From assembly GCF_010093595.1 (NCBI RefSeq), contig NW_022985439.1, forward strand, positions 1,407,822-1,471,821: 64,000 nucleotides of DNA, written 5' to 3'. The notes below the pieces were generated by a model that worked only from the letters and a program-made list of their open reading frames with translations, had not been told where the DNA came from and ran no database searches. Below are positions 37,935-56,644 of the stretch, piece after piece (within the stretch, counting starts at the first letter, position 1; each line of letters begins with the position of its first letter). Both the position numbers and the translations under genes were made by a program. The DNA comes from Mytilinidion resinicola. Its lineage: Eukaryota > Ascomycota > Dothideomycetes > Mytilinidiales > Mytilinidiaceae.

Positions 37935-39962
37935 TTAAATCCTGCCACGCTCCAGGAACTTGTTGGGGATATCAACATATTTCGACCGGATGTACTCGCA
38001 CAGGTTCTTGCCCAAGCTGTCGTAGCCACTAGTAGCGTTGAAACCACGGTCTAGATGATCGCGGAGAAGGAAGTGTACGGCGAGGATGTTGGGCATCTCA
38101 GACCGGTCGATGTTCTTGCCCTTGTCATCTTTGCCTAGTAACTCACGGAGCTTCTCGACGCTGAGCATCGTTCGGAACCAGTCGTACTCATCGGCATTGC
38201 GCACGAAGAGACCCAAGTTGGCATTGGAGGACTTGTCACCGGATCGACCCATCACTACGTAGCCCAGAGGAGCACGAGTAGTTGGGCCGAATTGTGATAG
38301 GTCAACAGGGTTGCGGGTGTTGTATGTGGGTTGGTTGAAGTCGTACGTCTTCATTTGTGTGGGGGTTGGGATGTCGATGACGGTGCCATCTGGAAGATGA
38401 GCAGTTTCTTTGACGAACGACTGAGGCATCAAGCTGACCCAGTACTCGAAGAATGGCCGTCCAATAGCCTGGCGCATGTCTGGAGCCATGGTAGATCCCG
38501 GATATCCTTGGAGCAAGTTCTCAATACAAAAGCGGGCGAAAGAACCCCGATCAGAATCGATCATAGCGCCAGCGGATAAAAGATCAGGATCTTGGGTCTG
38601 GGCGAAAATCCTCAGGTCCACAGTAGCCTCATCCTGAGATTGCGGATCTACTGGCACTGAGCCTGCGATTTGGAATTTGAGGCATGTGAATTTCTTTGCG
38701 TGGTCACCGAGAGCAGCTAATGTTTGGCGTTCGATCATCTTTGCCTTCTCCTCGATATCGAGACCGGTAAGGTAGAAGTGGAACTCGGCCTGGTAGCCAC
38801 CCTTAGCGGTGATACCGACTGAAACACTTTGTTAGTGGTTTGTTGAGAAGCAGAATATAACGAATGGAGCGTACCTTTGGTGGTAGATGGGGCAGGCATG
38901 CCCTTAACACCAGAAACCTTGACAGCGTTCTCTCCAACTTGTTCTAGCTTGACATCCTCGAGATACGCGGTGACGTCCGAATTGTAGTAGTAAGGGCCCT
39001 GGATCTCGTATAGAAGCTGGCTGGCAACGGTGGCGACGTTGACAAGGCCGTGCTTGCCCTTCTCCATTGTGATAACGGCTTCACCGAGGTGGTCAAGAGC
39101 AGCAATGGGGTAGCCCATGTCGGTATCATTGACGCCAAGGTCCTTGAAACCACTGTAGTAGCCACCAGTGGCGTATGTGCTGCACTCGATGATGTGTCCA
39201 ACCATCAAAGCACCTGCGAGCTCCTGGACGTCCTCACGCTTCCAGCCGTGCCACCACATTGCGGCACCAACAATAGGCGACGCATCAGCGACACGACCGC
39301 ATACGACGATATCTGCTCCTCCTTCAAAGCAGGCAGCGATACCAGTACCTCCAAGGTAGCATTGGGCGCAGATTGGGTCGAAACCCCAGTCTTGAATATT
39401 CTTGCCGGCGGGAAGGTTGGGGAAGTTTTCGCCTGTATCAAGTTAAGCTATTGTCCGCCAAACACGTCGGTATAGCTTACCCTTGTTGTACAACTCCAGC
39501 ATAGCATCGGTAACATCGTCACCATCGACATATCCAACCTTCAGATCAACACCGTGCTTGATGATCAACTTCTTGACTGCCTCCGCAAGACCTTGGACAT
39601 CACTTGCACCGGCATTGACGCAAATCTTGGTCTTGTTCTTCGCTAACCACGGGATGGCAGGGTCGAGCTCCTCGAGGAAGTATGGTTCGTAGGCAGCGCC
39701 AACTGCGGATAGCTGCTTCTTGTTGAGTTTATCCCGCTTATCAGAGCCACGGAGGGTCATGTTGCACTCGCTCATCCAATCTCCAGTAATGACATCGACT
39801 TGCGGCTCATTCTTGGCCATGTCATGGATGGCTCTTTTGCGATCGTAAACACCTAAACAGCAAATCATGTTAGTGAGTGTTCCAGACGAAAGTGGGAACT
39901 CTCTCACCTCCAGAGCATCCTGCCACATTGATGGGCCTCTTGTGAGTACCGTTGGCAGCCAT
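37935..39962 (-). CDS. AtuA-like protein 1 (DUF1446, acyclic terpene utilisation family)
   Basis: Member of the family named after Pseudomonas AtuA, which is needed for citronellol/geraniol breakdown but has no defined reaction. Four exons (introns 39853-39907, 39433-39480, 38819-38874) give 622 aa. Visible blocks: INVAGCSGG-VYDRKRAIHDM, VDVITGDWMSECNM, KTKICVNAGASDVQGLAEAV, GADIVVCGRVADASPIVGAA, GHIIECSTYATGGYYSGF and, in the C-terminal AtuA-like domain, VMGRSGDKSSNANLGLFVRN. A paralogue with a different exon structure lies 10 kb away. No PTS1 is present (ends ERGRI). Its promoter carries the GCTAATGATTCATTAGC palindrome. Confidence 0.9.
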
Positions 39963-40687
39963 GTTGAACTAAGAGAATGGCGATTTGTGAAAAAGAATGA
40001 ACTTAGGGGCAGGGTATCGTAAAAGTTCCGGGTCGAAAGTCAGGACAGAATACAGTAAAGGCTTGGGCTTGGGCCTGGGCTTGAAAAGAGCTTTATATCT
40101 CCTCAACGTTCTCAGTCCCCTTTGCCGACTTATCCATCCTAGAGGGTCACGGCACATGACACTCCGCTATGCTTGAGAGACCTTGCGGGGCGTATGCAAA
40201 CAGAAGACGCCGGGGTAAGAAGTCCGGTAGGAAGAGGCTGGGTTCTCATGCAGGACTGGGTGGGGGAACGTCTTCTGTACGGTAGACAATAGCCATACCA
40301 ATCCAGGCCCAGCAAGAAGGGATTCTTACTGGGGTTGATTGGACAAGGATTTATAGGTGGAGAGGTCGCGGGGTCGAGAATTTGTGGAGTGGCAACTGGT
40401 AGGACAGAGCTACTGATTCATCCCGCTAATCACCATAATCCGAGACGCTAATGATTCATTAGCCCACAATTTTGAGCGTGCCCCGCGATTTTCTGACAAG
40501 TTGGATGCGCTGAGACACGCTGGGTGATCGATGAAAGGCCATACATACAGTTAGGCGCCGCGGAACGTCGGGCCAATTTCTATTCTGTGAGCGCGAAGTC
40601 TTACCATAACGAAGTCGTTCAATTCAAGCATAATGCGCAGAGATTTCGTATAGCTTTGTATAGACTTCTATGATGTACACGGGATTC
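39963..40687. other. Promoter region of AtuA-like 1 and 3' flank of the ABM gene
   Basis: Contains a degenerate GCTACTGATTCAT (40409-40421) followed by the full palindrome at 40447-40463. Otherwise no gene. Confidence 0.5.
40447..40463. promoter_or_regulatory. Palindromic element GCTAATGATTCATTAGC, site 1
   Basis: 17-bp near-perfect palindrome 485 bp upstream of AtuA-like 1. The core TGATTCA has the layout of an AP-1/Gcn4-like bZIP site. A 16-bp match in inverse orientation lies in the ECH1/AtuA-like 2 promoter. Confidence 0.6.
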
Positions 40688-41468
40688 TTATAGGTTGGAA
40701 GACGGCCTCTCTTTGTGGAGATAGCCTGCTACAACTTTAAGGAATGCAAACTTTAGATTTGTCCTGATATCGCCATACTTTGCCTTATTGTTGGTCACAG
40801 CTGCACTCTTCGCATGGACATCCCAGAGATATTTCTCGCTCTCGTACACCTCGATGGTCCTAATGGTGTTCTCCTGCTCCTTGTCTTTTAGGATTGCGTA
40901 TGCCAATGTGCCTGGCTCGTTGTTCTGGCTCTCCGACGTGACGGCTTTCCAGCCGTCGAATGCGCCCTCTCTGGTCCCCTCCTTATAATCGAGTGTCGCG
41001 AATACAATAAAAGGATTGCTCGCCTTGTTGCTTTCTGGTCTGGTGAAGGAAAAGGCAGTTTCCGTTGTGTAGACTCTCGTAGGGGCAGCGAACAGCGAAG
41101 TGTCCGTGGTGAAGGTCTTTATCAAATCCTGGACCGCATCAGAAGCCAGGTGAGCATCGACTGTGGCCTGGTCGGCATATCTAGGATGGTCAACAGGGTG
41201 TCGCCATGTGGTTGCTGTGTTGGACTAACTCTTCGATAGCGTAGACGGATAATTCATCCTGGGGATCAATAGAAACTGTCACGGCGTATCTGACAACTCC
41301 AGGCTCCTGGGCTTGCGAGTAGTGGCCGACTTTGGTGAGTGCATCGATGAGCTGTACGCGGCATGTTAGCCAGTCGACTACGGAATAGATATTGCTAGAG
41401 AAACATGCCTTTTGCTTAGCCTCTTTTGAAGCCGCAGCGAGATGTCCGATCACGACGATAGAAGGCAT
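40688..41468 (-). CDS. Protein with two ABM-type dimeric alpha/beta-barrel domains
   Basis: 224-aa protein made of two antibiotic-biosynthesis-monooxygenase-like ferredoxin folds (about 1-105 and 115-215), a fold used by small cofactor-free oxygenases and isomerases. Three exons. Intron 1 (41352-41408) begins GC (AAG|GCATGT) and has a CTAAC branch site; it is 57 bp and stays open, so retention would insert 19 residues in the first domain. Intron 2 is 41181-41229. Motifs: EPGVVRYAVTVSIDPQDELSV, then EPGTLAYAILKDK and IEVYESEKYLWDVHAKS. The C-terminus is Ser-Asn-Leu, as in the MaoC hydratase at 53 kb. It probably acts in the same pathway; the reaction is unknown. Confidence 0.78.
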
Positions 41469-41981
41469 TTTTGGGGATTGAGTATGTGTTCCAGGAGAAG
41501 ACCGCCATCAAGGTGTCCAGCGATTCGTTTTGTCCCCTCCACTAGACCGCACATGCGGACAAGCTAGCGGGAACGAGTTGCTAGAGCACGGCATCACAGC
41601 CGGTCGGAATGCGGGAGTTGAGAGGGCTGAGATAGGCACTGTGTGTCCAGGTGGAGGTCAAGGAAGTAGGTTACCGAAGATCACGTGCTCACCCAGCTTA
41701 CGAAATAATGCATGACCCTTGCGTGCCTTGTTACCGAACCTCACTTTCACTTTCTCATCACAATCTCGATAAATTCCAACCGTAACCGTTTGCTTATGCT
41801 TTCTAGCTCACTCTTTTTATGATCAGTTCGTCAGCAGCACGTGGGAACAGAACACGTTCGAAAAAGCGCCATGAAAATTCCCAGAGGACCAAGTTCTTGC
41901 TTGAACAACGTTTCATAAAGACATAGTTATACGATGCTTCAAGATGCTCGAAACTCTTTGTTTATAGCAAAACGGGAACTC
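41469..41981. other. Promoter region of the ABM gene and 3' flank of the MFS gene
   Basis: Contains GATCACGTGC at 41679-41688 and a second CACGTG at 41838-41843. No gene seen. Confidence 0.5.
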
Positions 41982-44055
41982 TCAAACGACGTCTTTCTCC
42001 TGAGCAACATGATCATGTTCCAAATTCCCCCCGATGGTTTTGCCGTGCATCCTCCTCTCGATCTTGTTGGTAAGATGCTTCTTAGGATTCTTAGTAAACA
42101 GAGACCCAATAATGGCGATACCTCCGAACCCCAGGGACGCTAAGTAGACTGTCTTGAACGCAGCTGCATATGCGAACGGAACAGACCCCGCTACTGCGGT
42201 GATGACGGCAGTTGTTATGCCTGGGACTTCCGCTAAATTTCCTGTGCTTACCGCTGCTAGTACCGCGGGGACCTCTGATGAGGGCAGCCCAGCTGCGACG
42301 GCTGCACCGCCTACCATAGAAGGTATGGTTTCAGACAACCTGTTTGTCAAAATGGTAGAATACACAGCGACGGCGATTGATCCACCAGCTGCTCGGATCG
42401 ATGCCAGCATACCAGACGAAAGGCCAATGTCTTCTGCGTGGCAGAACAGTGGGGCCATAGACAAAGCAGCGAGCTCGATAAAGCCAACGAAGAATGGTCC
42501 AAGAATGGTGAAGGCAATACCCATACTTTTCGTACTCGGTGTCAGGGACGCGAGAGCCGATACGAACGAGACCATCCCACAGGCTGATATGATTGTCCAA
42601 TATCGAGCATTACCAAAGTAGCGGATCATGCCTCCAGCGCATACCTGACCGAGTGCCGTGGCGGCGCTAACAGTGCACTGAAAACTGAGAGTTAGTAGAG
42701 CTTCCGAAGAGCCTGAGTACTGCTGTACTACTTACAGAAAGCCAGCCAGCATAATTCACATCAGAGGTGTACATTGTTGAGACCTGTTGTGGCCCTGTCG
42801 CTTGGGTCAGCTTTTTCCATAAACCAGGATCGCCATACTTACACAGAAGAACGGCTGAATAGTAGAACATGCTAGCAACAGTTGCGCAAGTTACCAAGCT
42901 GATAAAGCCTCGATTTCGAAACATTTTCATGGGCATGAGAGGGTACTTGGAGCCCCCGAATGCCTCCCAGAATCCAAACGAGATCAGCAGAATTACACCG
43001 ATTACCATTGTACTGATCACGGCAGCAGATTTCCACGGGAACAATCCGCCTCCCTAAGTTTTCACCGTTAGGATGACAGGAGATTAAAGGTACAATTTGC
43101 ACTGCTGGTTCAGAAGACAGACTTACCCAAGAAAGACCCATCAAGAACAAAGTGAGGCCAGAGATCCACAAGAACATGCCGAGATAATCCAATTCTTTGG
43201 CCTGCGAAAGCTTGCTCTTATGTTCGTGTAACATCTCAAAGGTTGGTGGATGGTAGAAGAAGAACAGAAGAACGGCAGCCAAGCCGGTTGTGATGAGGTT
43301 GAGGTAATATGTCCACCTCCACCCCAAGGAAGGGTTCTGAATGAATGCTCGTGCAATCTTTGGTCCAAACGTGGCAATTGGGGCTGATGTCGCAAATATG
43401 AAACTCATAACAGCCGGGCGGTATTTGTTTGGAACCAACTCTCCGACTGCGACACCGAAGCTGAGCTGAATGCATTCTCCGAGGCCATAGACCACGCTCG
43501 CGAGAATCAAAGCTGTGATATTCTGAGCAGTGCAGCCTACGATGACTCCGATGAAGCAAACGACATTGCCACCGATGAAGAAATAGCGCCTCCCTGCTTT
43601 ACGTTAGTCACTGCATGGCGATAACTAGGGAGGTGGAGCTTACCGAACAAGTCAGACAATCTGCCCGACACCAAAAACATGGCACTTTCAGCAAGAGTTC
43701 TCCCGATATTGACCCATGCGATGTTTTTATCTGGACCTGCTTTACGTTAGTTACTGCATGGCGATAACTAGGGAGGTGGAGCTTACCTATATCCTCATTT
43801 ATATAGGTCAGAACATTGGTAGGTAGGATGAGGAAGATATACGCCGACATTTGCGCAAGACAGAGTCCCTGTATGTTGTTAGGGCGAGATCTGGGATGGG
43901 GGTGTACGAGAAGTCCTCACAGCCATCGTTCCTAGGAATGGTAGACTGTAAAAGTAATTATCTGGGATTGTATCGCCCCGCGCGACTTCGTTAATAGAGA
44001 GAGTCTCCTCTTGCGAAGAGGTCTCCTCCTCGAAGATTTCGTGCTTTTCGGCCAT
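41982..44055 (-). CDS. MFS transporter, TRI12/DHA-type, with two near-identical introns
   Basis: Fourteen-helix drug:H+ or organic-acid transporter of the fungal TRI12-like family at the plasma membrane; likely to import or export the cluster's substrate. Seven exons give 580 aa; introns 43869-43920, 43737-43786, 43594-43643, 43054-43126, 42795-42842 and 42678-42735. The MFS loop motif GRLSDLFGRRYFFIGGN spans the third intron. Other family blocks are YGLGECIQLSFGVAVGELVP, LGWRWTYYLNLIT, GGLFPWKSAAV and GLSSGMLASIRAAGGSIAVAVY. The cytosolic N-terminus is acidic. Introns two and three are 49/50 identical to each other (separate entry). Confidence 0.88.
43594..43643 (-). repeat. Introner-like intron copy B
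   Basis: 50-bp phase-1 spliceosomal intron, donor GTAAGC, branch CTAAC, acceptor GCAG. It is identical to the intron at 43737-43786 except for one base (G for A) in the stem TAGTTA/TGACTA. Confidence 0.85.
43737..43786 (-). repeat. Introner-like intron copy A
   Basis: 50-bp phase-1 intron of the same gene, separated from copy B by a 93-bp exon. It carries a perfect TAGTTA/TAACTA inverted repeat around an 11-nt loop just before the branch site. One flanking base on each side is also shared, but the surrounding exons are unrelated. Confidence 0.85.
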
Positions 44056-44807
44056 GTTGTCCTTGTGGGATAGCGGATCCATGTGGACGGCGTACGGTGA
44101 GGGAGGTATTGTTCGGCCTTGACACGTTGGAGACGAGAGGAAAACCCAAGTACTCAATCTCGGAAAGATGTTGTGCGAGTATCAAAGGACGACAGAGAGT
44201 CGTGTTGTAAGTGATCTCTCTCACAATGACCAGGGAAATAGTCCACTGCCCAGGAAGGGAGCTCCCTACATATACCAAGGCGTCATCCTTATTACCTCAC
44301 CCTCGTAATTTCAGGGCCTAGGGGCATCCAAAACATCCTGGCACCCATCTGGTCTCCGCAGCCTCCGGGGCCTCCGCACCATCTAAGCGATGTCTGGGGT
44401 CTGGGGAGTAATCTGTGGGGACCGGGGAAACCTTGGGGTTGATCACCCGGAAAACGATTTGCAGATCGTAGCGCGTCTCGAAACTGCACATGCCGATTCA
44501 TGTCCTGCAGGCACTAGTGATTCGGGTGAAGAATTTGACTCAGGTAGTGCGCTAGAGGAGACGACGACGAGTCAATGGACCCCGAAATAGCGCGTCCGCA
44601 ACATCACCCGTCCACTCAGCACAACGCATTGCATCGGAAAGCTCTACTCTTTGTGCCACTTCTTGCGATGCATAAACCCAGGTTCCATCATCACGTGTTT
44701 CATGGATTGGTCTCGTTGTTCGATGAGATATACACTATTCTGACTATCATCTTAGACTCTCCAACATCCAGCCAGTCTTCCCGCCAGGTGAACCCCGGAG
44801 ACAATCA
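44056..44807. other. Intergenic region MFS 5' / SDR 3'
   Basis: MFS promoter; contains ATCACGTGTT at 44690-44699. Open frames at 44390-44838 have no protein-like features. No transcription factor gene was found here. Confidence 0.45.
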
Positions 44808-45687
44808 TCAGCATATCCATCCCCCGTCAACCGAATGAATCGCTCCCGTTATGAAAGTGGACTCATCCCCCAGAAGGAAGGCTACCAAAGTTGCTACCTC
44901 CGATGGCTTCCCTGGCCTGTTTAGCGCCGTATGGGCATAATTGTTAAAAGTGACGTTTGGATTGCCAGCGCCCGCGATTTCTCGTGCCTTAGCGACCATT
45001 GGGGTCTCTATCGTGCCGCTATATCCCGTTTTAGCTTTCACAGCCTTAGTTCAAGCATGGCTGTATCACTTACGGAGCAATGGCATTCACCCTGATGCCT
45101 CTAGATCCCATATCTTTTGCGGCACTTCGTGTAAGACCGACCACGCCATGCTTACTGGCTGAATACGAGGCATTCTTTGCTCGGCCTGATATGCCCGCAA
45201 CCGAAGCAGCATTGACAATGGAGCCACCATTCTCCATGTTCTGAAGCTGAGCTCTTTGGCAGTACCTGTCGATTCGCCAAATTAAGACCAAATCAGGAAC
45301 AGATAGATGTGGCACTAACATTAAACCAGTAAGGTTAACACCTATTACAAAATCCCAATCAGAATCTTCAATATCCGCAGCGGTCTTGATTCCAATAGCG
45401 TTCCCAGTCACTCCAGCCAAATTGGCAGCACCGTTTAATTTCCCAAATTTCGAGACGGTGGCATCGATCCACGCATCTACCTGCTTCCGGTCCCTGACGT
45501 CCATCTTGAACGTCATGACCTCTCCGCCGGCAGACCGTATCTCCTTCGCCGCTTCGTCTAATGGCCCTTCCTGTACATCCCCAATGGACACCCTAGCGCC
45601 TCTCGAAGCTAGTAGTTTCGCGGTAACGAGGCCAATTCCAGATGCCCCACCAGACACAACAATCACTTTGTCCTTTAAAGAAGACAT
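44808..45687 (-). CDS. Short-chain dehydrogenase/reductase (classical SDR)
   Basis: NAD(P)-dependent oxidoreductase, 256 aa, three exons (introns 45266-45319 and 45019-45073). The Rossmann motif is VVSGGASGIGLVTAKLL; an Asp (IGDVQ) at the end of beta-2 suggests NAD(H). NLAGVTG stands for the NNAG motif, followed by the catalytic Ser in NAASVAGISG and YSASKHGVV with Tyr and Lys. It closes with the family end FLLGDESTFITGAIHSVDGG. No PTS1 is present (ends WIC). In the cluster it could act as the 3-hydroxyacyl-CoA or alcohol dehydrogenase. Head-to-head with acyl-CoA ligase 1. Confidence 0.9.
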
Positions 45688-46056
45688 AATATTGGATTAA
45701 ATAATGGTAGAGCCTATGGGTTGGGTAGAATGATAGGACCCCTGCAGCTTGCGGAGAAGGTCGATAATCGAGCACTACTACCGGTGATATATTGTGGAGA
45801 AGGGAAAGTATTGCTGAGTTTGAAATGCTACACTGTCAAGTACTCACAGTTGCACTTGTCAGCTTTATGGAGCAATGTTCGGCACTTGGTTCAAACCCCG
45901 CGTCCAAAGCTGGAAAATGTCTCCCGATCACGTGCCTTAACGCTTACAGAGCTCCACTTACTCGTATCTTTAGGTAGGTAGTATTTACAGCCTTTCTGGA
46001 GGATCTTTGCGCCTGTATCACACTGACTGTATTCGATTCGATTTCCTTCGGCCACG
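45688..46056. promoter_or_regulatory. Bidirectional promoter SDR / acyl-CoA ligase 1
   Basis: 369 bp between two divergent starts. It contains GATCACGTGC at 45926-45935, a 10-base match to the ABM promoter. No TGATTCA palindrome is present. Confidence 0.55.
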
Positions 46057-48091
46057 ATGTCAACTTCAAGAATATATCGTTCGAACTACCCCCGTCCTCA
46101 TGTTCCAACGAATCTCAGCATATCCCAATATCTTCAGCTATACAACCCAGACGATACAGCCGCCGACAAAGTTATCTTCGAAGACGATTGGACAGGAAAG
46201 ACTCTAACCTATTCCGGGTTGAGAGCTCAAAGCGCTAGAGGCGCTTTTAGTCTAAGACAGTTACTCAATCTAGAGGAGGGAGGAGCCGGTGCGTTTGTCA
46301 TTATGCTTCTGCAACTTTGTGCCTTTCACGCGGTCTGATTTATTCTAGTGCTCATATGCGCCCCAAACTCAGTAAATGAACCTTCGGCACGGCATTCGAG
46401 CACTCCAGGCTGATGAAGCTACCAGGTGGATGTCGTACTATTGATTCATGCAGTCTTGTGGTGTGGTGGGACTGCTATGTGAGCTTGAAAGACGTCTAGA
46501 ACGCCCCAGATTCTGATCCTCCGCTTTTAGACTCGTCAACCCGCTCAGCACCTCGTACGAGGTAGCCCACTGCCTCGGAATATCTGAGCCAAAAATCCTA
46601 GTCGCCGACTCAAGCACATGGCCAACCCTGTTTGCTGCAAGCCAGACAGTTCCAGCGGCCGGGAAATTCGCCACGTTGTCTCTAGATGCGGCACCATGTC
46701 CCTTTCCGTCGGTATAGTCTTCCCGTCTCACCTCCCATTACCCCGGATCGAAATTGATAGCTTCCAGGCCATTCGCCTACCCAATATTTTCCAAACGAAC
46801 AATGCTTTACCGCCAATGGACTTATCGGAGCGAGACAGCCGCGAGCACACGGCATGTGTCTGTTTTAGCTCTGGAACCAGTGGCAAAGCGAAGGGAGTGG
46901 AGCTGTCCCACTACAATCTCGTCGCGACCATGGCAGGGATCCGGCCGTCGGATACCACTCTCTGGAACGAGACTATCAGTCAAGTTTTCTTTGCCCCTCT
47001 GTGTCATATCTATGGTGCGTGCCCGGGCGGTCTGATCAGACTAACCTGGTCTTAATCAAGGCGTAGGACTCGTGAGCGCCGCTCTGATGGGAGCATCGAT
47101 TGGCTATTACACCATGTTGATGAGGAAGTACACGCTTGGCGGCCTCCTTGAGCTCTCAGCAAAGGTGAACGCTAACACCTTACGCATCCTTCCTACCATT
47201 GCGGTTGCGATCACTAAGGATCATGGGTTCGACCTCGCACAGTTACGGAGTATCAAGTTGATCATGTGCGCCGGAGCTACATTGCCCCCAAAGATCATCG
47301 AGTTCTTCAACCACCGATTTCCCGGCGCCCCTATCTTCCAAGGCTACGGGATGACTGAGACGAATATCACCACTCTTAGAGCTGAGCAGGCTCACATGAT
47401 AGGCAGTGTGGGAAAGCTATTTGCTAACCTTGAAGCTAGGTTGGTCGATGATGATATGAATGATGTGAAGTTTGGCGACGAAGGAGAGATGCTCGTACGC
47501 GGGCCAACAGTCTTTCGCAGGTATATGAAAAACCAAGCAGCGACAGATGAGGCTTTCCATAATGGCTGGATGAAGACAGGGGATATTTTACGGTCTGATG
47601 AGAATGGGTTCTTCTATTTGACTGAACGCAAGAAGGTACGTTGCTCGGAAATGGATGGTGGACCTTTCGCTAATGCTGGATGTCTTCTAGGAATTGATCA
47701 AGTACAAAGGGTATGAGCTCTTGTTATAATTGAGGAAACATCCGACTAATTCGACTTCAGTAACCAAGTTGCACCCGCAGAGCTAGAAGCGTACCTTGGC
47801 GGCCACCCTTATGTCAGAGAGTGTGCTGTTTGTGCACTTTGGGATGAAGACCAGGGCACTGAAGTCCCCATCGCATACGTTGTCCTGACTGATGAAGGAA
47901 GAGCAGCGAGGGAGAACATTGAAGTTACGCTGGCTGACATCCAGAAACATGTCGACAGCAAAGTCTCGCCCTACAAGAAACTCAGAGGAGGTGTTGTAGC
48001 GCTAGACGAGATACCAAAAACAGGCACAGGCAAGGTACTGCGACGTCTGCTGCCCGCAAGGCTAGCAAAAGAACGATCATCAAAGCTTTAA
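46057..48091 (+). CDS. Acyl-CoA ligase 1 (4CL-like ANL superfamily), peroxisomal
   Basis: Activates a carboxylic acid to its CoA thioester through an adenylate. Eight exons give 553 aa; introns 46289-46348, 46372-46425, 46479-46530, 46712-46767, 47015-47060, 47636-47690 and 47711-47760 keep frame. Adenylation motifs: CFSSGTSGKAKGVELSH (P-loop), GYGMTETN, GWMKTGDI and ELIKYKGNQVAPAELEAYL, then the C-terminal Lys in PKTGTGKVLRR. It ends SSKL, a canonical PTS1. Two exons are tiny (23 and 20 bp). Substrate unknown. Confidence 0.9.
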
Positions 48092-48123
48092 ATATATACA
48101 TTCACAAGTTCAACATCACACCC

Positions 48124-48960
48124 CTATAACCTGCTCGCCTTCCACACCGGCGCGCGCTTCTCACTAAACGCCTTCAGCCCCTCCAGTATATTCTCCCCCT
48201 TCTGCAACTCCGCAAACTCCCTATCCATCGTAATCCCCACTGCCTCCTCCACAGCCGCCGTCTCCCACCCCTGCCTTATCCCCGCCCTCGTGCATATGAT
48301 AGCATCAGGACTATTTACCGCAATCGCCGTCGCGTACTCGACCGCCTCCTTAATCAGCTCCCCCTTCGGCACAACCTTATTCACAAGCCCCCAGGCTAGA
48401 GCCTCCTGGGCCGTGACGTTCCGCCCGGTCAGCGCGAATTCGCTCGCCCGCTGCAGCCCAATCGTGCGAATGAGCCGCGGCAGAGCGCCTCCTATAGGCG
48501 AGATGCCGCGCTTGACCTCCGGCAGCCCAAAGTACGCCTCCTCGGCCGCGACAACGAGGTCGCAGTTGACGATGAACTCCGTCCCGCCGCCCATGGTGAG
48601 GCCGTTGACGGCTGCGATAACGGGCTTCTTACCGAGCCGTCGTGAAAGCGGTGTGAAAGCGGGCGCGTTGCCCATGCGGCTGTTGGGGTCGGCGCCGGTG
48701 TCCATGGAGGAGTTCCACTCTTTGAGGTCGGCGCCGGCGCTGAAGGCGCGCCCGGTGCCCGTGATGATGGCGACGGAGAGGTTGGGCTCGGCGTCGAGCC
48801 ATTTCCAGACGGCGTCCATTTCCCATTGCGCGGTCGTGTTCATGCAGTTGAGGTCTTTGGGGCGGTTCATGGTGATGAGGAGGACGCGGGGGGCTGGATA
48901 GGAGAGGAGGAGGAAGGTGGGTGTTGGTGGTGGGGGTGTTGTGGTTGGTAGGGAGGCCAT
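48124..48960 (-). CDS. Enoyl-CoA hydratase/isomerase 1, peroxisomal (PTS1 SRL)
   Basis: Crotonase-fold protein, 278 aa, no introns. Oxyanion-hole segments are seen in AFSAGADLKEW and AAVNGLTMGGGTEFIVNCDL; a Glu sits in YFGLPEVKRGISPIGGALPRL, at the place of catalytic Glu in hydratases. It ends KASRL, a PTS1 variant, so it should be peroxisomal. The N-terminus has a Pro/Thr run. It is convergent with ligase 1 (32 bp apart) and head-to-head with AtuA-like 2. Confidence 0.9.
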   Translation of the reverse strand: MASLPTTTPPPPTPTFLLLSYPAPRVLLITMNRPKDLNCMNTTAQWEMDAVWKWLDAEPNLSVAIITGTGRAFSAGADLKEWNSSMDTGADPNSRMGNAPAFTPLSRRLGKKPVIAAVNGLTMGGGTEFIVNCDLVVAAEEAYFGLPEVKRGISPIGGALPRLIRTIGLQRASEFALTGRNVTAQEALAWGLVNKVVPKGELIKEAVEYATAIAVNSPDAIICTRAGIRQGWETAAVEEAVGITMDREFAELQKGENILEGLKAFSEKRAPVWKASRL

Positions 48961-49683
48961 TGTGGGGTGCTTCGGGGGGAGAGTTCACGCAGAGTGAGTG
49001 ATGGATGTTCTAATGGAAAGAGAAGAAAGAGTTCCAAATCTGAACCAGGGAACTTCGATGCAATTCAACGCTGTGACTTCTTTAAACACCAAGCAATGCG
49101 AAGGCATGAAGAAAGACAGAAGTTTGGTGTTGAGATCGAAAGGTACCGCGAGTCAGGAGAATGATTGGAAAGATACAACAATCAGCTTCACGATTCGTGT
49201 GCAGACCTCGGGAGTCCCTGGTAGGCAACGTGGCGGGCGCCCCTACCGTGGCCGTCTCGACGGGTGAAAGACTCCGTGGGTGGCGGCATGCGGTGAGGAA
49301 AAGATGGAGACCACGTGGAGGGGTGGTGGAGTACCCCACGGCGGCCAGGGGTCGTCCTAATCCCAAGCGGGTCGCCCCTTAACCCCGTTCACTAATGAAT
49401 CATTAGCGTCTTTTTCAATTGCGGGGAAGAAGCCTCAAAACCACCTGCGCCGGAATCCGGCAACGCAAACCTGCATCAATTCATGCCATTGCTCTTGCTT
49501 GGCGGCGTCAATATGACTCCTGCGGTCCCCTCATTCAGGCCGGGCGGAGGGTATAACGGGTAGAACGGCGACGGTGTTCCTTCAAGGCAATACTCCGCAG
49601 GCAATGCACACCTCGTCCTTGCAAAATATCTCGAAGTCATACCAGAAACACCTCTCTTATCGCCCTGTCTCCACGTGGCCGAA
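48961..49683. promoter_or_regulatory. Bidirectional promoter ECH1 / AtuA-like 2
   Basis: 723 bp. It contains CTAATGAATCATTAGC at 49392-49407, an inverse 16-base match to site 1, and CACGTG boxes at 49312-49317 and 49672-49677 (the latter 7 bp before the AtuA-like 2 ATG). Confidence 0.6.
49392..49407. promoter_or_regulatory. Palindromic element, site 2 (CTAATGAATCATTAGC)
   Basis: Reverse complement GCTAATGATTCATTAG, identical to 16 of the 17 bases of site 1. It lies about 432 bp from the ECH1 start and 277 bp from the AtuA-like 2 start. Confidence 0.6.
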
Positions 49684-51546
49684 ATGAGCTCCCAAAACAC
49701 CACAGCGACACGACGGCCCATCCGCATAGGCAATGCCTCCGGCGCAATCGGGGACGGCATTGACCAGGTCTACCGCCTCGCACGCGACGGCAACGTGGAC
49801 GCAATCACGGCCGACTACCTCGCGGAATTCAATATTGCCTGGAAGGCCATTGAGTTGACTACGCAGCCGGACCTAGGATACGAGCCCAACTTCCTCGACC
49901 AGCTAGCATGGCAAGATGGCGCCGCTGCAAAGCTGCTGCGGAGGAAGAGAATCAAGGTTGCGCATGATGGTGGAGCATTGAACCCCAAAGGGCTTGCTGA
50001 AAAAGTTCATGCCTACTTCTTGAGCTTGGGCATCGAAGACATGAGGGTTGCGTGGGTCAGTGGTGATGATGTGACAGCGTTGGTCAGAGGGAACAACTTT
50101 GGAGCACTAAAACACTTGGATTTGCGAGGGGTGGAATTGGATACTAAGAAAGAAGAGGTTTTAGCCGCCAATGTGTATACTGGACAAGCAGGTGTCGTGC
50201 GGGCCCTCGAAGCTGGGGCTGACATTGTCATCTGCGGGAGGTGTTGTGATGCCTCTCCGGTCATGGGTCTAGCGTACTGGTGGCATAATTGGAAGTCCAC
50301 GGACTACGATGCCATGGCAGGAAGTCTGATCGCTGGACATCTCATCGAATGCGGGGCGTATGTGACGGGAGGGAACTACTGCGGGTTCAAGGAGATCCCC
50401 AACCGCTTCAGTTTCGGATACCCCATCGCCGAGATATCTGCAAATGGATCCGTGGTTATCACCATGCCAGACAACAGCAACGGAGCCGTGACCGTGGACA
50501 CCACCAAGGCACAGCTGCTCTACGAGATTCAGGGGTCCTTCTATCTCAACGCCGACGTTATAGCACGCATAGACGGTGCTGTATTGGAACAAGTGGGTAA
50601 GAATAGGGTCAGACTGTCTGGAATCAAAGGATCTGCACCGCCTCCGACATCGAAACTAGCAATCAGCCTCTTTGGTGGCTGGCAGGCCGAGCTATCAGCA
50701 TACGCTGCAGGGCTGGACACCGAAGAGAAATTTGGCATGATGAAAGATCAAGTGCGCCGATATATCAACCCGGCTGAGTTTACGACTTTCAGCACGGAGA
50801 CATACGGGTCAGTGCCCCAAGATCCGAAGTCCCAAAAGGAATGCACAGTGCAGCTTCGGATTTTTGCTCAGGCAGCGGAGAAGGAAGCTATCACAGAATT
50901 CAAAAGAGCAATCCTTTACAATGGTATACAGGGATATTGCGGATTGCATCTGCATATGGACTGGAGGACGATGGAGCCGCGGATGTATATCAAATACTTT
51001 CCAACTCTTGTCCCTCAAGATGGTACTCCGCTGGCCGTTCATTTCGTAGGCGAGCCTGGCAATGTCTTGGAGGTACCCGCAAAGAGGATCGAGGACTGTG
51101 CGGAAGAGGTTCCCGTACAGCCAGACTACGAAGGAAGGCATCAAGCCGTGAACCTGGCCACCTTCGGGGAAACAGTACGTCGTCCTCTCGGCGATCTGGT
51201 CTTTGGGCGCTCGGGTGACAAGGGTGGAAACGCAAATGTTGGCATCTGGGTAAGAGATACCAAGGCTTGGCCTTGGCTTCAAAGTTTCTTGACCTCAAAG
51301 AGGTTGAAGGAGCTCCTGGGCGATGATTGGAGTGAGAAGTACTCGGTCGAACGATGCGAATTTGAGCATCTTATGGCTGTTCATTTCGTAGTTCGCGGAA
51401 TCCTTCAAGACGGTGTCTCTAGCAGCAGCATCTTGGACGGCTTTGGGAAGAGTTTTGGGGAGTTCATTAGGGCGCGACATGTAGATATCCCGAAGGTTCT
51501 TCTAGAGGTTGAGCAGAGGAGGAGGCAACCTCAAGCACAGCTCTGA
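49684..51546 (+). CDS. AtuA-like protein 2 (DUF1446, acyclic terpene utilisation family)
   Basis: 620-aa intronless paralogue of the four-exon gene at 38-40 kb. Blocks: IRIGNASGAIGDG, AITADYLAEFNIAWK, KRIKVAHDGGALNPKGLAE, GADIVICGRCCDASPVMGLA, GHLIECGAYVTGGNYCGF, AQLLYEIQGSFYLNADV and, in the C-terminal domain, VFGRSGDKGGNANVGIWVRD. The start at 49684 (MSSQNTT) is the first ATG; the frame extends three codons upstream but without ATG. No PTS1 (ends PQAQL). It is flanked on both sides by CoA enzymes, which ties the family to CoA-linked catabolism here; the chemistry is not established. Confidence 0.9.
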   Translation: MSSQNTTATRRPIRIGNASGAIGDGIDQVYRLARDGNVDAITADYLAEFNIAWKAIELTTQPDLGYEPNFLDQLAWQDGAAAKLLRRKRIKVAHDGGALNPKGLAEKVHAYFLSLGIEDMRVAWVSGDDVTALVRGNNFGALKHLDLRGVELDTKKEEVLAANVYTGQAGVVRALEAGADIVICGRCCDASPVMGLAYWWHNWKSTDYDAMAGSLIAGHLIECGAYVTGGNYCGFKEIPNRFSFGYPIAEISANGSVVITMPDNSNGAVTVDTTKAQLLYEIQGSFYLNADVIARIDGAVLEQVGKNRVRLSGIKGSAPPPTSKLAISLFGGWQAELSAYAAGLDTEEKFGMMKDQVRRYINPAEFTTFSTETYGSVPQDPKSQKECTVQLRIFAQAAEKEAITEFKRAILYNGIQGYCGLHLHMDWRTMEPRMYIKYFPTLVPQDGTPLAVHFVGEPGNVLEVPAKRIEDCAEEVPVQPDYEGRHQAVNLATFGETVRRPLGDLVFGRSGDKGGNANVGIWVRDTKAWPWLQSFLTSKRLKELLGDDWSEKYSVERCEFEHLMAVHFVVRGILQDGVSSSSILDGFGKSFGEFIRARHVDIPKVLLEVEQRRRQPQAQL

Positions 51547-51924
51547 GGTCAACCCCAGACATAGGAGGTAGATGAATGAAAACTACCACTTAACACCATC
51601 ACAATTACCATAACGCATAGATAGAAGAAGTGACGAAGTTGAATTGGGTGATCACCAGTCCGGTCTCGGTTGGTCTGTTGGTGGAATTGGGACAAACAGT
51701 TCTGCTGAGTGAAGGCCCGGAAATGCTACACCGACCCCACATCCTTCTTCCACACCCACCCATGCCCCGACTGTCGATATTGCCTAGGTACTCCGAAAAC
51801 GGCATGGACTCTCTCGACGTCTTTCCCGCGCTGAGACGGCATGGGTTCATAGCTACCTGCTTGTCCTACCCTTTGCCCACGTCGTTGCCCGCATTTGCTA
51901 CCCCAAACTTCTCGAAGATTCCCA
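51547..51924. other. Intergenic region AtuA-like 2 3' / MaoC 5'
   Basis: Same-strand spacer with the promoter of the MaoC gene. An open frame at 51630-51938 ends inside the MaoC exon and is not supported. Confidence 0.45.
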
Positions 51925-53056
51925 ATGACTTCCTCTAGTGACAAGATCGTCAAAAACGCTTCCGGCCGCTATGACAACGTTGATTTCAAAAAGGCCATAG
52001 GGTACAAATACGCTCCCATAAAAGCTGCCTACCTTCGACGCGATATTCTCCTTTTCGTACGTTACTTCTCCCTGAACCTTCACTATACTGGCACTAATAG
52101 TCAAGCAGGCCAACGCAATTGGAGTGACCAAAGACGAACTACACTTCCTCTACGAACTGCACCCTAAGTTTGCGGCGTTTCCCACGTTCCCTATAAACCT
52201 AGCATTCAAACAGGACGACCAAGATGTGTTCGACTTCATCCAGCGAACCGTGTCAGCGGATGTACCCGGCGTCCCCCCATTCGACCCCAAACGATCCGTG
52301 GACGGCGAGCGTGGCATCGAGATCATTAGGCAGATACCTACGTCGTCAAAGGGCCTTGACTTGGAGATCAATGGCTCAATCGTTGGCGTGTATGACAAGG
52401 GAGGGAACATGATATTGGAGGCGGAGCACCTACTGCGAGACGCGAAGACCGACACTTTATACGCGAAAATGACCAGCACAGCTTTCGGGATTGGACAAGG
52501 CGGATACGGGGGCCCTCGCGGGCCTGCTACGAAGTCTTATCCGCCTCCGGAGCGTGCGCCAGATGCGGTGCATGTCTTCAAGACGTCGCCGGAGCAGACA
52601 CTCCTGTATCGGCTGTGTGGGGACTATAACCCAATACATGCAGATGACGAGTTTGCGAAAGCTGGAGGATTCAAGGAGGCTTTCATGCAGGGCTTGGGTA
52701 CTTGGAATATTGCCGCCCACGGGATCCTGAGGGAGGTTAGTGGTAGTGATCCCGCCCGATTTCGCAGCTTTAAGGCCAGGTTCGCGAACATCGTGTATCC
52801 TGGTATGTTCCACCGTAACTTCTACTATATATGCTAATAGTGTCTAGGTGACGCTTTGGAGACGCGTATTTGGAAGGTAGGGACAAAAGATGGTGTGGAT
52901 GAGTTCGTTTTCCAAACAATAGTCCAATCAGACGGACGTATTGCCCTGTAAGTTGAGATCATAGAACACGGCGTTTTCAAAAATGCTAACGACGATCCCA
53001 GATCTAATGGTTTTGCTACCATCAACCAACCAAGTCCTCTGAAGAGCAATCTATAG
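51925..53056 (+). CDS. MaoC-type enoyl-CoA hydratase 2 / 3-hydroxyacyl-CoA dehydratase
   Basis: Double hot-dog hydratase like the hydratase part of fungal multifunctional beta-oxidation enzymes. Four exons (introns 52057-52108, 52803-52847, 52948-53001) give 326 aa. The N-terminal half has GYKYAPIKAAYLRRDILLFA and FPTFPINLAF. The C-terminal half has the hydratase-2 motif YRLCGDYNPIHADDEFA with catalytic Asp and His, then FMQGLGTWNIAAHGI and FANIVYPGDALETRIW. It ends KSNL; SNL is a weak PTS1 candidate and is shared with the ABM protein. It could hydrate the 2-enoyl-CoA made in the pathway. Confidence 0.9.
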
Positions 53057-53150
53057 CGTCAAATCTCTAAATCATATCTTGTTTTCACATTCAAACTACC
53101 TGAGCACATCATCTTGAAAAGTCTATCAAATAATCTAGGATATAGAACAT

Positions 53151-54129
53151 CTACAAATACGAAGGCAACCACTTTGGATCCCTCTTCTCTCTATACGCCG
53201 CCAACCCCTCCGCAGCATTCCTACTTCTCAACATAGCCTCGCTGTAGATCTCCTGCCCTCGCATCGTCGCGCGACTGACACCCGTTTCCCACGCTTCTCG
53301 TGCCGCCAGCCTCGAGATGATAACGCTGTCGGGGCTCTTCTCCGCAATCTCAACCGCATACGCAATGGCCCTTTCTAGCAGCTGCTCCTGCGGCACAATT
53401 TCCTTTACCAACCCCCAGCTCACAGCTTCCTCTACCGACATCCGCCGCCCAGTCAAGATCAGATCCATAGTCCTGTGATTTCCGAAGAGCAGCATCGCCC
53501 GGGGCAGAGCACCAGCGAGTGCAGAAACACCGCGTAGGACCTCTGGTAGAGCGAACGTGGCGTTTGGCGACGCGAATATTACGTCTGCGTTCAGGATTGC
53601 TTCGAAGCCGCCGCCTGTTCCTTTAATCAGCACCCACCGGGGCTGCTATGAAGATTCTGTGGACATTTGAGGCCTACCGTGTGCATGTCCATTACAAGCC
53701 ACCACAATCGGCTTCTTCCCCGTCCGATTGCTCATGCCCGCGAATCCACCATGCGGGTAGTCATGGGCGACGTCGTTGGTCTTGATGAGGTCGAGGCGTT
53801 GCTTGAGGTCCATGCCTGCGCAGAAGGCCTTTTTGCCAGCCTATTGCCACGCAAGATTAGCATCTATTTCATACCATTTAACGTGGTTCGTATGCAACAC
53901 TTACGCCCGTGAACACCGCACATCTTAGCTCCGGCTCCGCATCATACCATTTCCACAGCGCACCCAGCTCGATAGTTGCTTCGACGGGGAGGCAGTTCAT
54001 GTACTGCTCGCGATTTATGGTGACCTGGAGGATATGTTTCGCGGGGAAGGAGATGAGCGAGTGCTCGACGCGGGGGTATGGGTTCTCGAGCCACGCGGGG
54101 ACGGGGTTTTTGGTGCGTGGGGTCGTCAT
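53151..54129 (-). CDS. Enoyl-CoA hydratase/isomerase 2
   Basis: Second crotonase-fold protein, 285 aa, three exons (introns 53841-53904 and 53621-53677). Segments: LQVTINREQYMNCLPVEATIELGALWKWYDAEP, KAFCAGMDLKQRL, VVACNGHAHGTGGGFEAIL, FALPEVLRGVSALAGALPRA and LAAYREKRDPKW. WKWYDAEPEL here and WKWLDAEPNL in ECH1 show the two are related. The C-terminal SYL is not a good PTS1. Tail-to-tail with MaoC (94 bp) and head-to-head with ligase 2. Confidence 0.9.
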
Positions 54130-54806
54130 TGTGGAGGATAAAAAGATAAGGCCGAATACACTGAACAGAATCTGGCTGTATACTCCTCAATTGAAAGGGA
54201 AAGATATGAAGAAATGCGACAATCAACAAGAAGAACAGAAATCCACGACTAGTCAATGCGCCAAACCTTCGAAGACTAATTTTGTCCCGCTTCCCACTCC
54301 ACGGGTCATCGACGCACGCTTCCTGCACCGCTCCATCGCTAATTCATAACTCGGCGCGTGCTTGAATCATTCCCCATGGCGAGGCGCTGCAGCGGTGTGC
54401 CAAGGGTATGCTTTTCCCACGGTGACGTCGGCTCTCGGAACTGATTCATTAGTGGCGTGCAGGGTGCGTACAGGGGTAGCTGGGTGCATGCGGGGTAGCT
54501 GTTGTGGGGCACGCTTGGACAGCGGATATCAGAACGCGGAGGTGAAGAGGTGGAGGAGAAGTAATGCGAGTAAGGTGCTTGGCCGGACGTAGCTATGTAC
54601 GACCGCGTGTTGGTGTAGTATTTCTCCATGGGGTAGGTAGGCTGCGGAAGAGACGGCTTCGGGGTGGACGAGGCTTCGAGGTGGACGAAGCTTCTCGTTT
54701 TCTCGTTGGAGCTGGTTTTTCTAGTCGGAAAGCTCGTTGTTGCGTCGTGATCGTGCATTTTGGGCCTCGCGATCTGTTCAAGTCATCGTTGAACACCCAA
54801 GTCAAA
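54130..54806. promoter_or_regulatory. Bidirectional promoter ECH2 / acyl-CoA ligase 2
   Basis: 677 bp. It contains CTGATTCATTAG at 54441-54452, and a related TGAATCATT (54363-54371) about 70 bp away. Open frames across it have no support. Confidence 0.55.
54441..54452. promoter_or_regulatory. Palindromic element, site 3 (CTGATTCATTAG)
   Basis: Shares TGATTCATTAG with site 1, lacking the left outer arm. It lies near the middle of the divergent promoter, 312 bp from ECH2 and 355 bp from ligase 2. Confidence 0.5.
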
Positions 54807-56644
54807 ATGCGTATCTACAAAGCCCCCCAAACGGTCGATATCCCCCAAGACCTCAACCTCACCGAGCTCCTCCACACGAGCAACGACCCGCCTCTTCCTC
54901 CCTCCCACCTCATCGCTAAAGATAGCCTCACAAACCGAAGCATTACAATTGGAGAGCTTCGCCAGCGTGCAGGGAGAATAGCAAATGGACTGAACTCCAC
55001 TTTCAAACCCCACGATCAGAGCAGGTGGGCGGTGATTCTGCCAAACAGCGTCGAGTATCTCGAGGTCTTCCATACGGTGCTCTGGGTTGGCGGAGTGGCG
55101 TGTCCTATAAACCATGCTATCAAGGCGGAAGAGATTGGCCATGCGTTCTCGGTTACAAGGCCAGATTTTGTCGTCGTATACGGGCCTGTGCTACCAAAAG
55201 TGCTCGAGGCAGTGGAGGTTGCGAGGAGAGATTTGACGGCCGAAGGAGTAGCCTGGGGTGCGCCTAAGATTGTGACTGTGATTGAGAGTGTCGATGGGTA
55301 CAAGCATTTTCCTGATGATTTTCTTCCCCGGGAGAAGTTAGCTATACCGCACTTCAACGATACGAAAAGGTGAGCTGTGATGTTGAGAGATAGTCAGACT
55401 GCGTCCAAGCTGATCTGGGTATTAGCCGTCTCGCAACAATACATCTCTCCTCTGGAACTACAGGCAAACCAAAAGGCGTCAAACTAACACAGTAAGTTAG
55501 TCCATGTAGTCATTGGTGCGGAAGCTGACATGAATCTAAGTTTCAATTTCGTATCCAACGTATATCAACTTCGTGCTCACGACCCGGCGCAGTTCCATCG
55601 TGGCAGCCGTGTTGTCGCCTTTACTCCATTCGCACATATCGGAAATACAACAATACCCTTATTTCTCGGGCCGTTCATGGGCATGATGCATCATGGTGAG
55701 TTCAACGTAACGTCATGTCTAATTCTTTGCTGATTGTGGCTCGACAAGCTATGCCCGCGTACGATCTTGAAACATTCGGACAGCTTGTAGATTCAAATAA
55801 AGCTACGATCTTTCAGGGTGTGCCTTCTGTCGTCCTTTCGTTTGCGAATACGGACATTGCCGAGAGGTTTGATTTCTCAAAAGCGGAAGCGATAAACATC
55901 GGCGGACCGCCTTTCAAACGGGACATGCTTGACAGGTTATTGGATAAAGCGCCATGGAGGTTGAACCAAGTCTACGGAATGACGGAAGGCGCTGGCTACG
56001 TCGCGTACCAAAGATCTACTGACAAACAACTGGAAGGGGTGGTAGGGCCTCTAGTACCAAACATAGAGGTAGCGTTGCGTATCAACGACGGCAAAGATGA
56101 TGCGCCTGAAAGCGGCCCAGGCGAGCTATGGGTGAGGGGCCCCAATATTACGAGGGGATATGCTTTCAACACTGAAGCAAATCAATCGGCGTTCCCTCAG
56201 GAGGGATGGTATAATACAGGAGATGTTTGTACGGTTTCGAAAGACGGGGTCATTGCGGTAGTAGGGCGGACGAAGGAGCTGATCAAGTACAAGGGCTTCC
56301 AAGTGAGCCCTGCGGAGCTGGAGTCGTATCTCAACTCTCATCCCCATGTTGTGGAAGCAGGTGTGGGACCTGTCTTTGACGAGAGCCAGCTCACGGAGCT
56401 ACCGACAGCGTATGTAATCCTGAAGGATCATTTAGTCCATGAAAAGGATAGAAGGACGGCTCTGAAGGAGATTCAAGCGACGGTGGACGACCGGGTGAGT
56501 GGCTATAAAAAACTGAGAGGCGGTGTATGGGAGGTGAACCTGTTGCCGAAAAATCCAACGGGCAAAATCCTGAGGAAACAACTCCAAGACCACAAGTCGG
56601 GTCTAAGCTCTCTAGATAGAGGGGATAGGAGATCGAAATTGTAG
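54807..56644 (+). CDS. Acyl-CoA ligase 2 (4CL-like ANL superfamily), peroxisomal
   Basis: Second adenylate-forming CoA ligase, 559 aa, four exons (introns 55370-55425, 55492-55540, 55696-55748). Motifs: IHLSSGTTGKPKGVKLTH (P-loop), VYGMTEGAGY, GWYNTGDV, RTKELIKYKGFQVSPAELESYL and the Lys of PKNPTGKILRK. It ends RRSKL, a canonical PTS1. It differs strongly from ligase 1 outside the motifs and has half as many introns, so the two are not a recent duplication; they may activate different acids or successive intermediates. Confidence 0.9.

What the first reader, a model, noticed from the sequence alone, without database searches (positions are those of the whole stretch)
37935..56644. Putative peroxisomal CoA-dependent catabolic gene cluster with two AtuA-like proteins
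Ten adjacent genes form a coherent set: two AtuA-like proteins, ABM protein, MFS transporter, SDR, two acyl-CoA ligases (both ending SKL), two crotonase-fold enzymes (one ending SRL) and a MaoC hydratase. Activation, hydration and dehydrogenation steps are all represented, and the PTS1 tails place several in the peroxisome. In Pseudomonas, AtuA belongs to acyclic terpene breakdown together with a CoA ligase, hydratase and SDRs. A fungal analogue arranged as a cluster would be a new pathway. The missing carboxylase argues against a copy of the bacterial route.
Basis: partly seen in the sequence, partly recalled or inferred. Interest (0 to 1): 0.85.

Follow-up and report, generated by a model that had tools for sequence, protein, structure and literature searches.

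The report
Conserved fungal acid-breakdown gene cluster
A fungus carries ten neighbouring genes that look like a pathway for activating, hydrating and then cutting carbon-carbon bonds in a branched or ring-derived acid; core members of the set are neighbours in other fungi too, but the natural substrate is unknown.

The parts
37935..39962 (-). AtuA1, 622 aa, exons 39962-39908, 39852-39481, 39432-38875, 38818-37935; C-C lyase (inferred), tail GRI
   Evidence: PF07287 539 bits, PF23544 42 bits; 100% to deposited protein; fold like 9evf A and B
40688..41468 (-). ABM protein, 224 aa, two ABM stretches, exons 41468-41409, 41351-41230, 41180-40688; first intron read as GC-AG; tail SNL
   Evidence: PF03992; next to an ACL2 orthologue in run-together model P0262, 40%
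41982..44082 (-). MFS transporter, TRI12 type, 589 aa, seven exons
   Evidence: PF06609 253 bits
44808..45687 (-). Short-chain dehydrogenase, 256 aa, three exons
   Evidence: glycine motif and YxxxK
46057..48091 (+). ACL1, acyl-CoA ligase, 553 aa, eight exons, PTS1 SKL
   Evidence: (4-coumarate:CoA ligase nearest solved); next to AtuA2 in run-together model P0101 (57%)
48124..48960 (-). ECH1, crotonase, 278 aa, single exon, PTS1 SRL, both catalytic Glu kept
   Evidence: (SidH nearest solved relative, 290 bits, next 160)
49684..51546 (+). AtuA2, 620 aa, single exon; C-C lyase (inferred), tail AQL (86 of 120 relatives end KL, RL or HL)
51925..53056 (+). MaoC / MFE-2 hydratase-2 protein, 326 aa, four exons, GDxNPxH motif, tail SNL
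   Evidence: (PF01575, PF22622); next to AtuA2 in run-together models P0067 and P0115 (65 and 70%)
53151..54129 (-). ECH2, crotonase, 285 aa, three exons, both catalytic Glu kept, tail SYL
54807..56644 (+). ACL2, acyl-CoA ligase, 559 aa, four exons, PTS1 SKL
40443..40462 (+). 20-nt element holding the palindrome CTAATGATTCATTAG, about 480 bases upstream of the AtuA1 start codon
49392..49411 (-). the same 20-nt element, inverted, in the divergent ECH1/AtuA2 intergenic region
54442..54452 (+). TGATTCATTAG half element in the divergent ECH2/ACL2 intergenic region

Best explanation
A conserved ascomycete catabolic cluster that works as a beta-oxidation-like module with a special bond-cutting step. 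A carboxylic acid is activated to its CoA ester by ACL1/ACL2. Water is added across an alpha,beta double bond by ECH1/ECH2 (hydratase 1 type) or by the MaoC protein (hydratase 2 type). Where the beta carbon carries a branch or is part of a ring, hydration gives a tertiary alcohol that cannot be oxidised to a ketone. The AtuA lyases then cut the C-C bond next to that alcohol, releasing acetate or opening the ring, so that ordinary beta-oxidation can go on. The SDR oxidises secondary alcohols on the way; the MFS protein moves substrate or product. Since no carboxylase is present in the cluster, the substrate probably already carries the second carboxyl group, for example a ring-opened terpenoid or other plant-derived alicyclic acid. 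Shown: gene content, intact motifs, conserved neighbourhood of the core, shared promoter element, AtuA fold (by prediction). Inferred: the lyase reaction in this fungus, the order of steps, the substrate, the location of each enzyme.
Against: No expression, localisation or enzyme data. Identity of the AtuA models to the solved lyase is only 14-15%, and a shared fold does not prove a shared reaction; the review gives the ThnQS result as the authors' unpublished data. No thiolase, acyl-CoA dehydrogenase or oxidase is in the cluster. AtuA1 has no PTS1 (nor a PTS2-like stretch) in any of 39 orthologue rows, and the window's own AtuA2 lacks the PTS1. Co-location is not universal: in three Xylariaceae assemblies (FL1651, FL0255, FL1019) the listed AtuA2 and ACL2 lie on different contigs, and in Fusarium zealandicum AtuA2 (FZEAL_1610) is on another contig than AtuA1 (FZEAL_9455). 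Co-location was not tested for ECH1, ECH2, SDR or MFS. Degenerate forms of the palindrome are not enriched (47 places against 54 in the reversed control), and no site of the element was seen before SDR/ACL1 or MaoC.
Confidence: 0.6

Rival explanations
1. A biosynthetic or tailoring cluster: a peroxisomal ligase-hydratase set that builds a branched acyl side chain, as SidI and SidH do for the siderophore TAFC, with AtuA trimming the chain and the MFS protein exporting the product.
For: Both crotonases have SidH as nearest solved relative by a wide margin, ECH1 at about 50% identity (136 of 271, my count); TRI12-type MFS proteins are often efflux pumps and ABM proteins are common in secondary metabolism (both recalled).
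Against: No synthase, NRPS, P450 or acyltransferase among the ten genes. SidH may only mark a fungal clade: a genome locus on C40 is nearer to ECH1 (55% over 94-278, 60% over 8-81) and one on C29 about as near as SidH (49%). Occurrence of the core in several fungal classes without a core synthase is more like catabolism.
Confidence: 0.2
2. A true acyclic-terpene (Atu-type) route: geranyl- or citronellyl-type CoA, with the carboxylation done in trans by a carboxylase encoded elsewhere.
For: AtuA, hydratase, ligase and dehydrogenase types are present; the genome has a carboxyltransferase gene on C27 (446 kb) that was the best query for every carboxyltransferase printed beside bacterial AtuA genes; I read it as methylcrotonyl-CoA type, not tested further.
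Against: Of 80 bacterial AtuA loci 46 have a carboxyltransferase in reach (example), the fungal cluster has none. No AtuD-type dehydrogenase in the cluster. The bacterial AtuA nearest to AtuA2 (L042, 42%) has no carboxyltransferase in its 21.7 kb locus, though differences are small (35-42% for the bacterial rows).
Confidence: 0.15
3. Chance neighbours of unrelated function.
For: SDR and MFS genes are common, and their co-location in other species was not tested; nor was that of ECH1 and ECH2; ABM rests on one case.
Against:: conserved neighbourhood with near-zero controls, and a shared rare element.
Confidence: 0.03

Closest known systems
Citramalate lyase CmlA/CmlB (PDB 9erq, 9evf), named in the PDB as an AtuA-family protein
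   Different: Two separate chains, here fused; 14-15% identity; the fungal context has CoA ligases and enoyl-CoA hydratases, so the substrate is probably a CoA ester.
Bacterial acyclic terpene utilisation (atu) operon
   Same: AtuA, enoyl-CoA hydratase, acyl-CoA synthetase and dehydrogenase types (PMC4847356 passages).
   Different: No carboxylase, no acyl-CoA dehydrogenase; two AtuA genes, extra MaoC, ABM and a second ligase and crotonase; peroxisomal signals.
thn operon of anaerobic naphthalene degradation, ThnQ/ThnS lyase (PMC12016498, section 13 read in full)
   Same: AtuA-like lyases beside crotonases and MaoC hydratases; cleavage at a tertiary alcohol made by a hydratase.
   Different: Anaerobic bacterium; its operon also has aryl-CoA reductase, acyl-CoA dehydrogenase, CoA-transferase and thiolase genes (section 12, part 1), not found among the ten genes here.
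SidI/SidH peroxisomal steps of the siderophore TAFC (PMC3709128, abstract start in search listing only)
   Same: Fungal peroxisomal ligase plus crotonase acting on mevalonyl-CoA, a 3-methyl-branched ester (structure recalled); SidH is the nearest solved relative of both crotonases.
   Different: No AtuA known in that pathway (recalled); ECH1 is about 50% identical to SidH and one genome copy is nearer to ECH1.
Monoterpene response of Grosmannia clavigera (PMC4368105 passages)
   Same: Conifer fungus; an acyl-CoA ligase gene (CMQ_6959) at 1107-fold on monoterpenes; many monoterpene-induced genes are said to lie in one genomic region.
   Different: Whether that ligase lies in that region, and whether it resembles this cluster, was not tested: the primary papers were not held.

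Membership tests
AtuA family (PF07287 + PF23544) | Both Pfam domains over cut-off | tested here: met
   AtuA1 and AtuA2
CmlA-type C-C lyase | Fold of CmlA and of the small chain | tested here: met
   on predicted models; 9evf_A is the only E <= 1e-3 match of both; 9evf_B E 0.039 and 0.015, weak alone
CmlA-type C-C lyase | Lyase activity on a tertiary hydroxy acid | not testable with these tools
   needs enzyme assay
Bacterial Atu operon | Geranyl-CoA carboxylase genes in the cluster | tested here: not met
   none of the ten genes; carboxyltransferase domains were found on C27 and C33
Bacterial Atu operon | Citronellyl-CoA dehydrogenase in the cluster | tested here: not met
   no acyl-CoA dehydrogenase domain among the ten genes
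Bacterial Atu operon | Ligase, enoyl-CoA hydratase and dehydrogenase present | tested here: met
Peroxisomal pathway | PTS1 on the enzymes | tested here: inconclusive
   3 of 10 strict in the window; ACL2 relatives 93 of 120, AtuA2 relatives 43 of 120, AtuA1 orthologue rows 0 of 39
Conserved fungal gene cluster | Co-location of orthologues in other species beyond control | tested here: met
   for AtuA1, AtuA2, ACL2; MaoC (two cases), ACL1 and ABM (one each) from run-together models; not tested for ECH1, ECH2, SDR, MFS; exceptions in three Xylariaceae and Fusarium zealandicum
Siderophore (SidI/SidH) pathway | SidF-type acyltransferase or NRPS alongside | tested here: not met
   none among the ten genes; siderophore genes need not be clustered, so this is weak
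Co-regulated cluster | Joint expression | not testable with these tools
   only a shared promoter element was found

The most novel reading that the evidence does not exclude
An ascomycete, partly peroxisomal pathway that opens alicyclic or terpenoid-derived dicarboxylic acids without prior carboxylation: ligase, crotonase or hydratase-2 hydration to a tertiary alcohol, then retro-aldol cleavage by AtuA-type lyases, with two anciently split fungal lyase lineages (AtuA2 with peroxisomal tails in many species, AtuA1 without) working in one cluster under one palindromic promoter element. It would give AtuA proteins a fungal role, of which my searches found none described, and would give the family a common chemistry from citramalate to polycyclic aromatics.
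Probability: 0.3. Interest if true: 0.7.

Novelty: new variant of a known kind. Interest (0 to 1): 0.5.

Why it matters
AtuA (DUF1446) proteins are common in fungi (searches scored 2391 and 6774 matches at E <= 1e-30, overlapping, from capped candidate lists, not all fungal), yet in the passages I saw they are only listed or guessed to be transport proteins. Linking them by predicted fold to a solved C-C lyase, and by conserved neighbourhood to ligases and hydratases, turns an unknown into a direct enzyme test. If right, it shows how fungi on resinous or lignified plants deal with beta-branched and ring-derived acids that normal beta-oxidation cannot pass.

Tried and rejected
Chance adjacency: rejected for the core. 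Palindrome as a genome-wide motif: allowing two mismatches gave 47 places against 54 for the reversed control, so only the perfect form stands out. Of two one-mismatch sites elsewhere, C2:284870 lies about 850 bases before a TRI12 MFS homologue; at C18:6278 I saw nothing recognisable in 2.2 kb read by eye. The P value for TGATTCATTAG (6e-8) is after the fact, since two of the three sites suggested the motif; the third alone gives 0.007. CCTCGG, TGACTCA and CCAAT (regulator sites, recalled) show no clear pattern.

Control: the script's label 'paralogues at 70% or less' was loose. Six of those 81 rows (P0162, P0164, P0169, P0171, P0180, P0183) are shorter proteins at 73-90% identity and probably orthologues; P0160 groups with AtuA1 in the tree. 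The single shared contig of the control is P0200 (55%), so leaving these rows out changes neither count.

SidH-type substrate: not adopted. One genome locus is nearer to ECH1 than SidH is, another about equal (against my count). Fungal relatives in viral contigs: none. Single-sequence PDB search with AtuA2: nothing at E <= 1. NCBIfam: no match for either AtuA; for ECH1, ECH2, SDR, ACL2, ABM and MaoC no row shown is over its cut-off (ACL1 and MFS not given). Bacterial neighbourhood (80 kept of at least 586 loci; 50 of 80 longer than 18 kb, so counts are lower bounds): carboxyltransferase 46, crotonase 40, ligase 20; ligase plus hydratase without carboxyltransferase 4. MaoC was never the best query in the printed bacterial loci. 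Literature on a described fungal AtuA cluster: searches (of, only the 25 listed of 360) showed none; the library is open-access papers only, and the Grosmannia primary papers are not held, so a described relative cannot be excluded. VIA-align rows below 9evf mostly cover one ferredoxin-like stretch; no family is excluded by absence.
Full report
What is there. The window lies in a 47 Mb fungal genome. The deposited Mytilinidion resinicola AtuA1 protein is 100% identical to my model, and its contig length (2,943,684) equals that of G000 contig C3, so the organism is Mytilinidion resinicola (Dothideomycetes, Mytilinidiales). I spliced ten genes by hand: AtuA1, ABM, MFS and SDR on the minus strand; ACL1 plus; ECH1 minus; AtuA2 and MaoC plus; ECH2 minus; ACL2 plus. 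Each is open, each hits the expected Pfam family, and the motifs tested in ACL1, ACL2, ECH1, ECH2, MaoC, SDR and both AtuAs are kept. The neighbours outside are a Swc3 chromatin-subunit gene on the left and a Fringe-like gene on the right.

Is it more than chance? Three protein searches list the 120 best relatives of AtuA2, AtuA1 and ACL2 with contig length and deposited name. AtuA2 and ACL2 share 37 lengths, ten of them under 30 kb, the shortest 4,574 bases. The 39 best AtuA1 rows (71% identity or more, one being the window itself) share 8 with AtuA2 and 8 with ACL2; four contigs carry all three. The remaining 81 AtuA1 rows (80 distinct lengths) share 1 and 0. Deposited gene numbers show close neighbours: AtuA2/ACL2 one apart in Stylonectria norvegica, Fusarium decemcellulare and Thyridium curvatum; AtuA1/AtuA2 two apart in Neoarthrinium moseri, Neonectria punicea, N. 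ditissima and Verticillium albo-atrum, and eight in Microdochium bolleyi (identifiers there may not follow position); AtuA1/ACL2 two apart in Fusarium zealandicum and eight in Paraconiothyrium brasiliense. Gene predictions that ran two neighbours together add adjacency: AtuA2+MaoC in P0067 (Neoarthrinium) and P0115 (Colletotrichum), AtuA2+ACL1 in P0101 (Cudoniella), ACL2+ABM in P0262 (Xylariales). I read these as run-together models, not true fusions. P0139 puts a TauD-type dioxygenase next to AtuA1, a gene not in this window. Against: in Xylariaceae FL1651, FL0255 and FL1019 the listed AtuA2 and ACL2 are on different contigs, and in Fusarium zealandicum AtuA2 is on another contig than AtuA1. 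By general knowledge the species span Dothideo-, Sordario-, Leotio- and Eurotiomycetes. Lists were cut at 120, so counts are lower bounds; ECH1, ECH2, SDR and MFS were not searched.

Within the genome, seven further AtuA loci were found (a lower bound). None has a ligase, crotonase or MaoC match within about 9 kb; one has a weak SDR match (24%, E 7e-5).

A shared promoter element. A 20-nt stretch upstream of AtuA1 (40443-40462) recurs exactly, inverted, between ECH1 and AtuA2 (49392-49411). Its core CTAATGAWTCATTAG has two perfect copies in the genome, both here. The half TGATTCATTAG occurs 19 times in the genome (control 17), three times in the cluster, the third between ECH2 and ACL2 (54442-54452); 0.0075 expected. 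The motif was chosen after seeing two of the sites, so the fair figure for the third is about 0.007. Degenerate copies are not enriched, and no copy was seen before SDR/ACL1 or MaoC; the MFS upstream region has only GATTCAT. This suggests, without proof, joint control of at least the AtuA1, ECH1/AtuA2 and ECH2/ACL2 genes by an unidentified factor.

Tree. Among 80 AtuA proteins, 24 fungal AtuA2 rows form one group (support 100), AtuA1 lies in a second fungal group with other fungal copies, and the 24 sampled bacterial rows form a third (99) (quick method, midpoint root, and the tool warns that two long branches meet). So the two cluster lyases appear to belong to old separate lines and are not a recent tandem copy.

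Bacterial comparison. Of 80 bacterial AtuA loci, 46 have a carboxyltransferase in reach, 40 a crotonase and 20 a ligase; a Rhodococcus plasmid shows carboxylase, hydratase, AtuA, acyl-CoA dehydrogenase and ligase side by side. The fungal cluster has no carboxylase and no acyl-CoA dehydrogenase. The genome has carboxyltransferase domains elsewhere (C27 at two places, C33), so supply in trans cannot be excluded.

The other enzymes. Both crotonases are nearest, among solved structures, to SidH (290 and 214 bits; next 160 and 130). ECH1 is about 50% identical to it; a genome locus on C40 is nearer (55-60% in two pieces) and one on C29 about equal (49%), so I read SidH as marking a fungal clade. 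The MaoC protein resembles peroxisomal hydratase 2. ACL1 is nearest to 4-coumarate:CoA ligases, which does not fix the substrate.

Location. Strict PTS1 tails in the window: ACL1, ACL2, ECH1. Among relatives: ACL2 93 of 120, AtuA2 43 of 120 (86 of 120 end in KL, RL or HL), AtuA1 orthologue rows 0 of 39. The window's AtuA2 itself ends AQL.

Literature. Fungal AtuA or DUF1446 proteins are mentioned as an enriched family in a toluene-degrading black yeast (PMC5595782 passages), in a table of NapA-related genes of Aspergillus nidulans (PMC5371717 passage), in a table for Moniliophthora (PMC3948071 passage) and as possible terpene transport proteins in a pine-needle fungus (PMC12148953 passages). 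Searches showed no described fungal AtuA cluster in the held library. In Grosmannia clavigera an acyl-CoA ligase is at 1107-fold on monoterpenes, and many monoterpene-induced genes are said to share a genomic region (PMC4368105 passages); whether this is a relative is untested.

Verdict. The best mechanism is activation, hydration and lyase cleavage of a branched or ring-derived acid. The terpene label is unproven.

I corrected the SidH comparison, the label of the control, the Grosmannia wording and several 'all' and 'none' claims, and added the synteny exceptions. None of these altered the odds.

Noticed in passing
43594-43643 and 43737-43786: Introns 2 and 3 of the MFS gene are 49 of 50 identical. 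A genome search with this stretch reported no other place, but its sensitivity for a 50-base copy alone was not shown. Looks like a recent intron duplication within one gene.
   Followed up: partly
37511-37850: A 340-base element with 17-nt inverted ends directly 3' of AtuA1; 36 further matches in the genome, most of them partial, probably a small non-autonomous DNA transposon at the cluster's left edge.
   Followed up: partly
20884-22308: A Pex24p-type peroxisomal membrane peroxin gene about 16 kb left of the cluster; probably coincidence.
   Followed up: no
G000:C2:284870 (L027 around 4871): One-mismatch copy of the cluster palindrome about 850 bases before a TRI12 MFS homologue.
   Followed up: no
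P0139 (Neoarthrinium moseri): A run-together model joins AtuA1 with a TauD-type dioxygenase (Pfam column), a possible extra pathway member not among the ten genes here.
   Followed up: no
G000:C33:163336-164740: A further carboxyltransferase-domain gene that was never the best query for the bacterial AtuA neighbours printed; function not examined.
   Followed up: no
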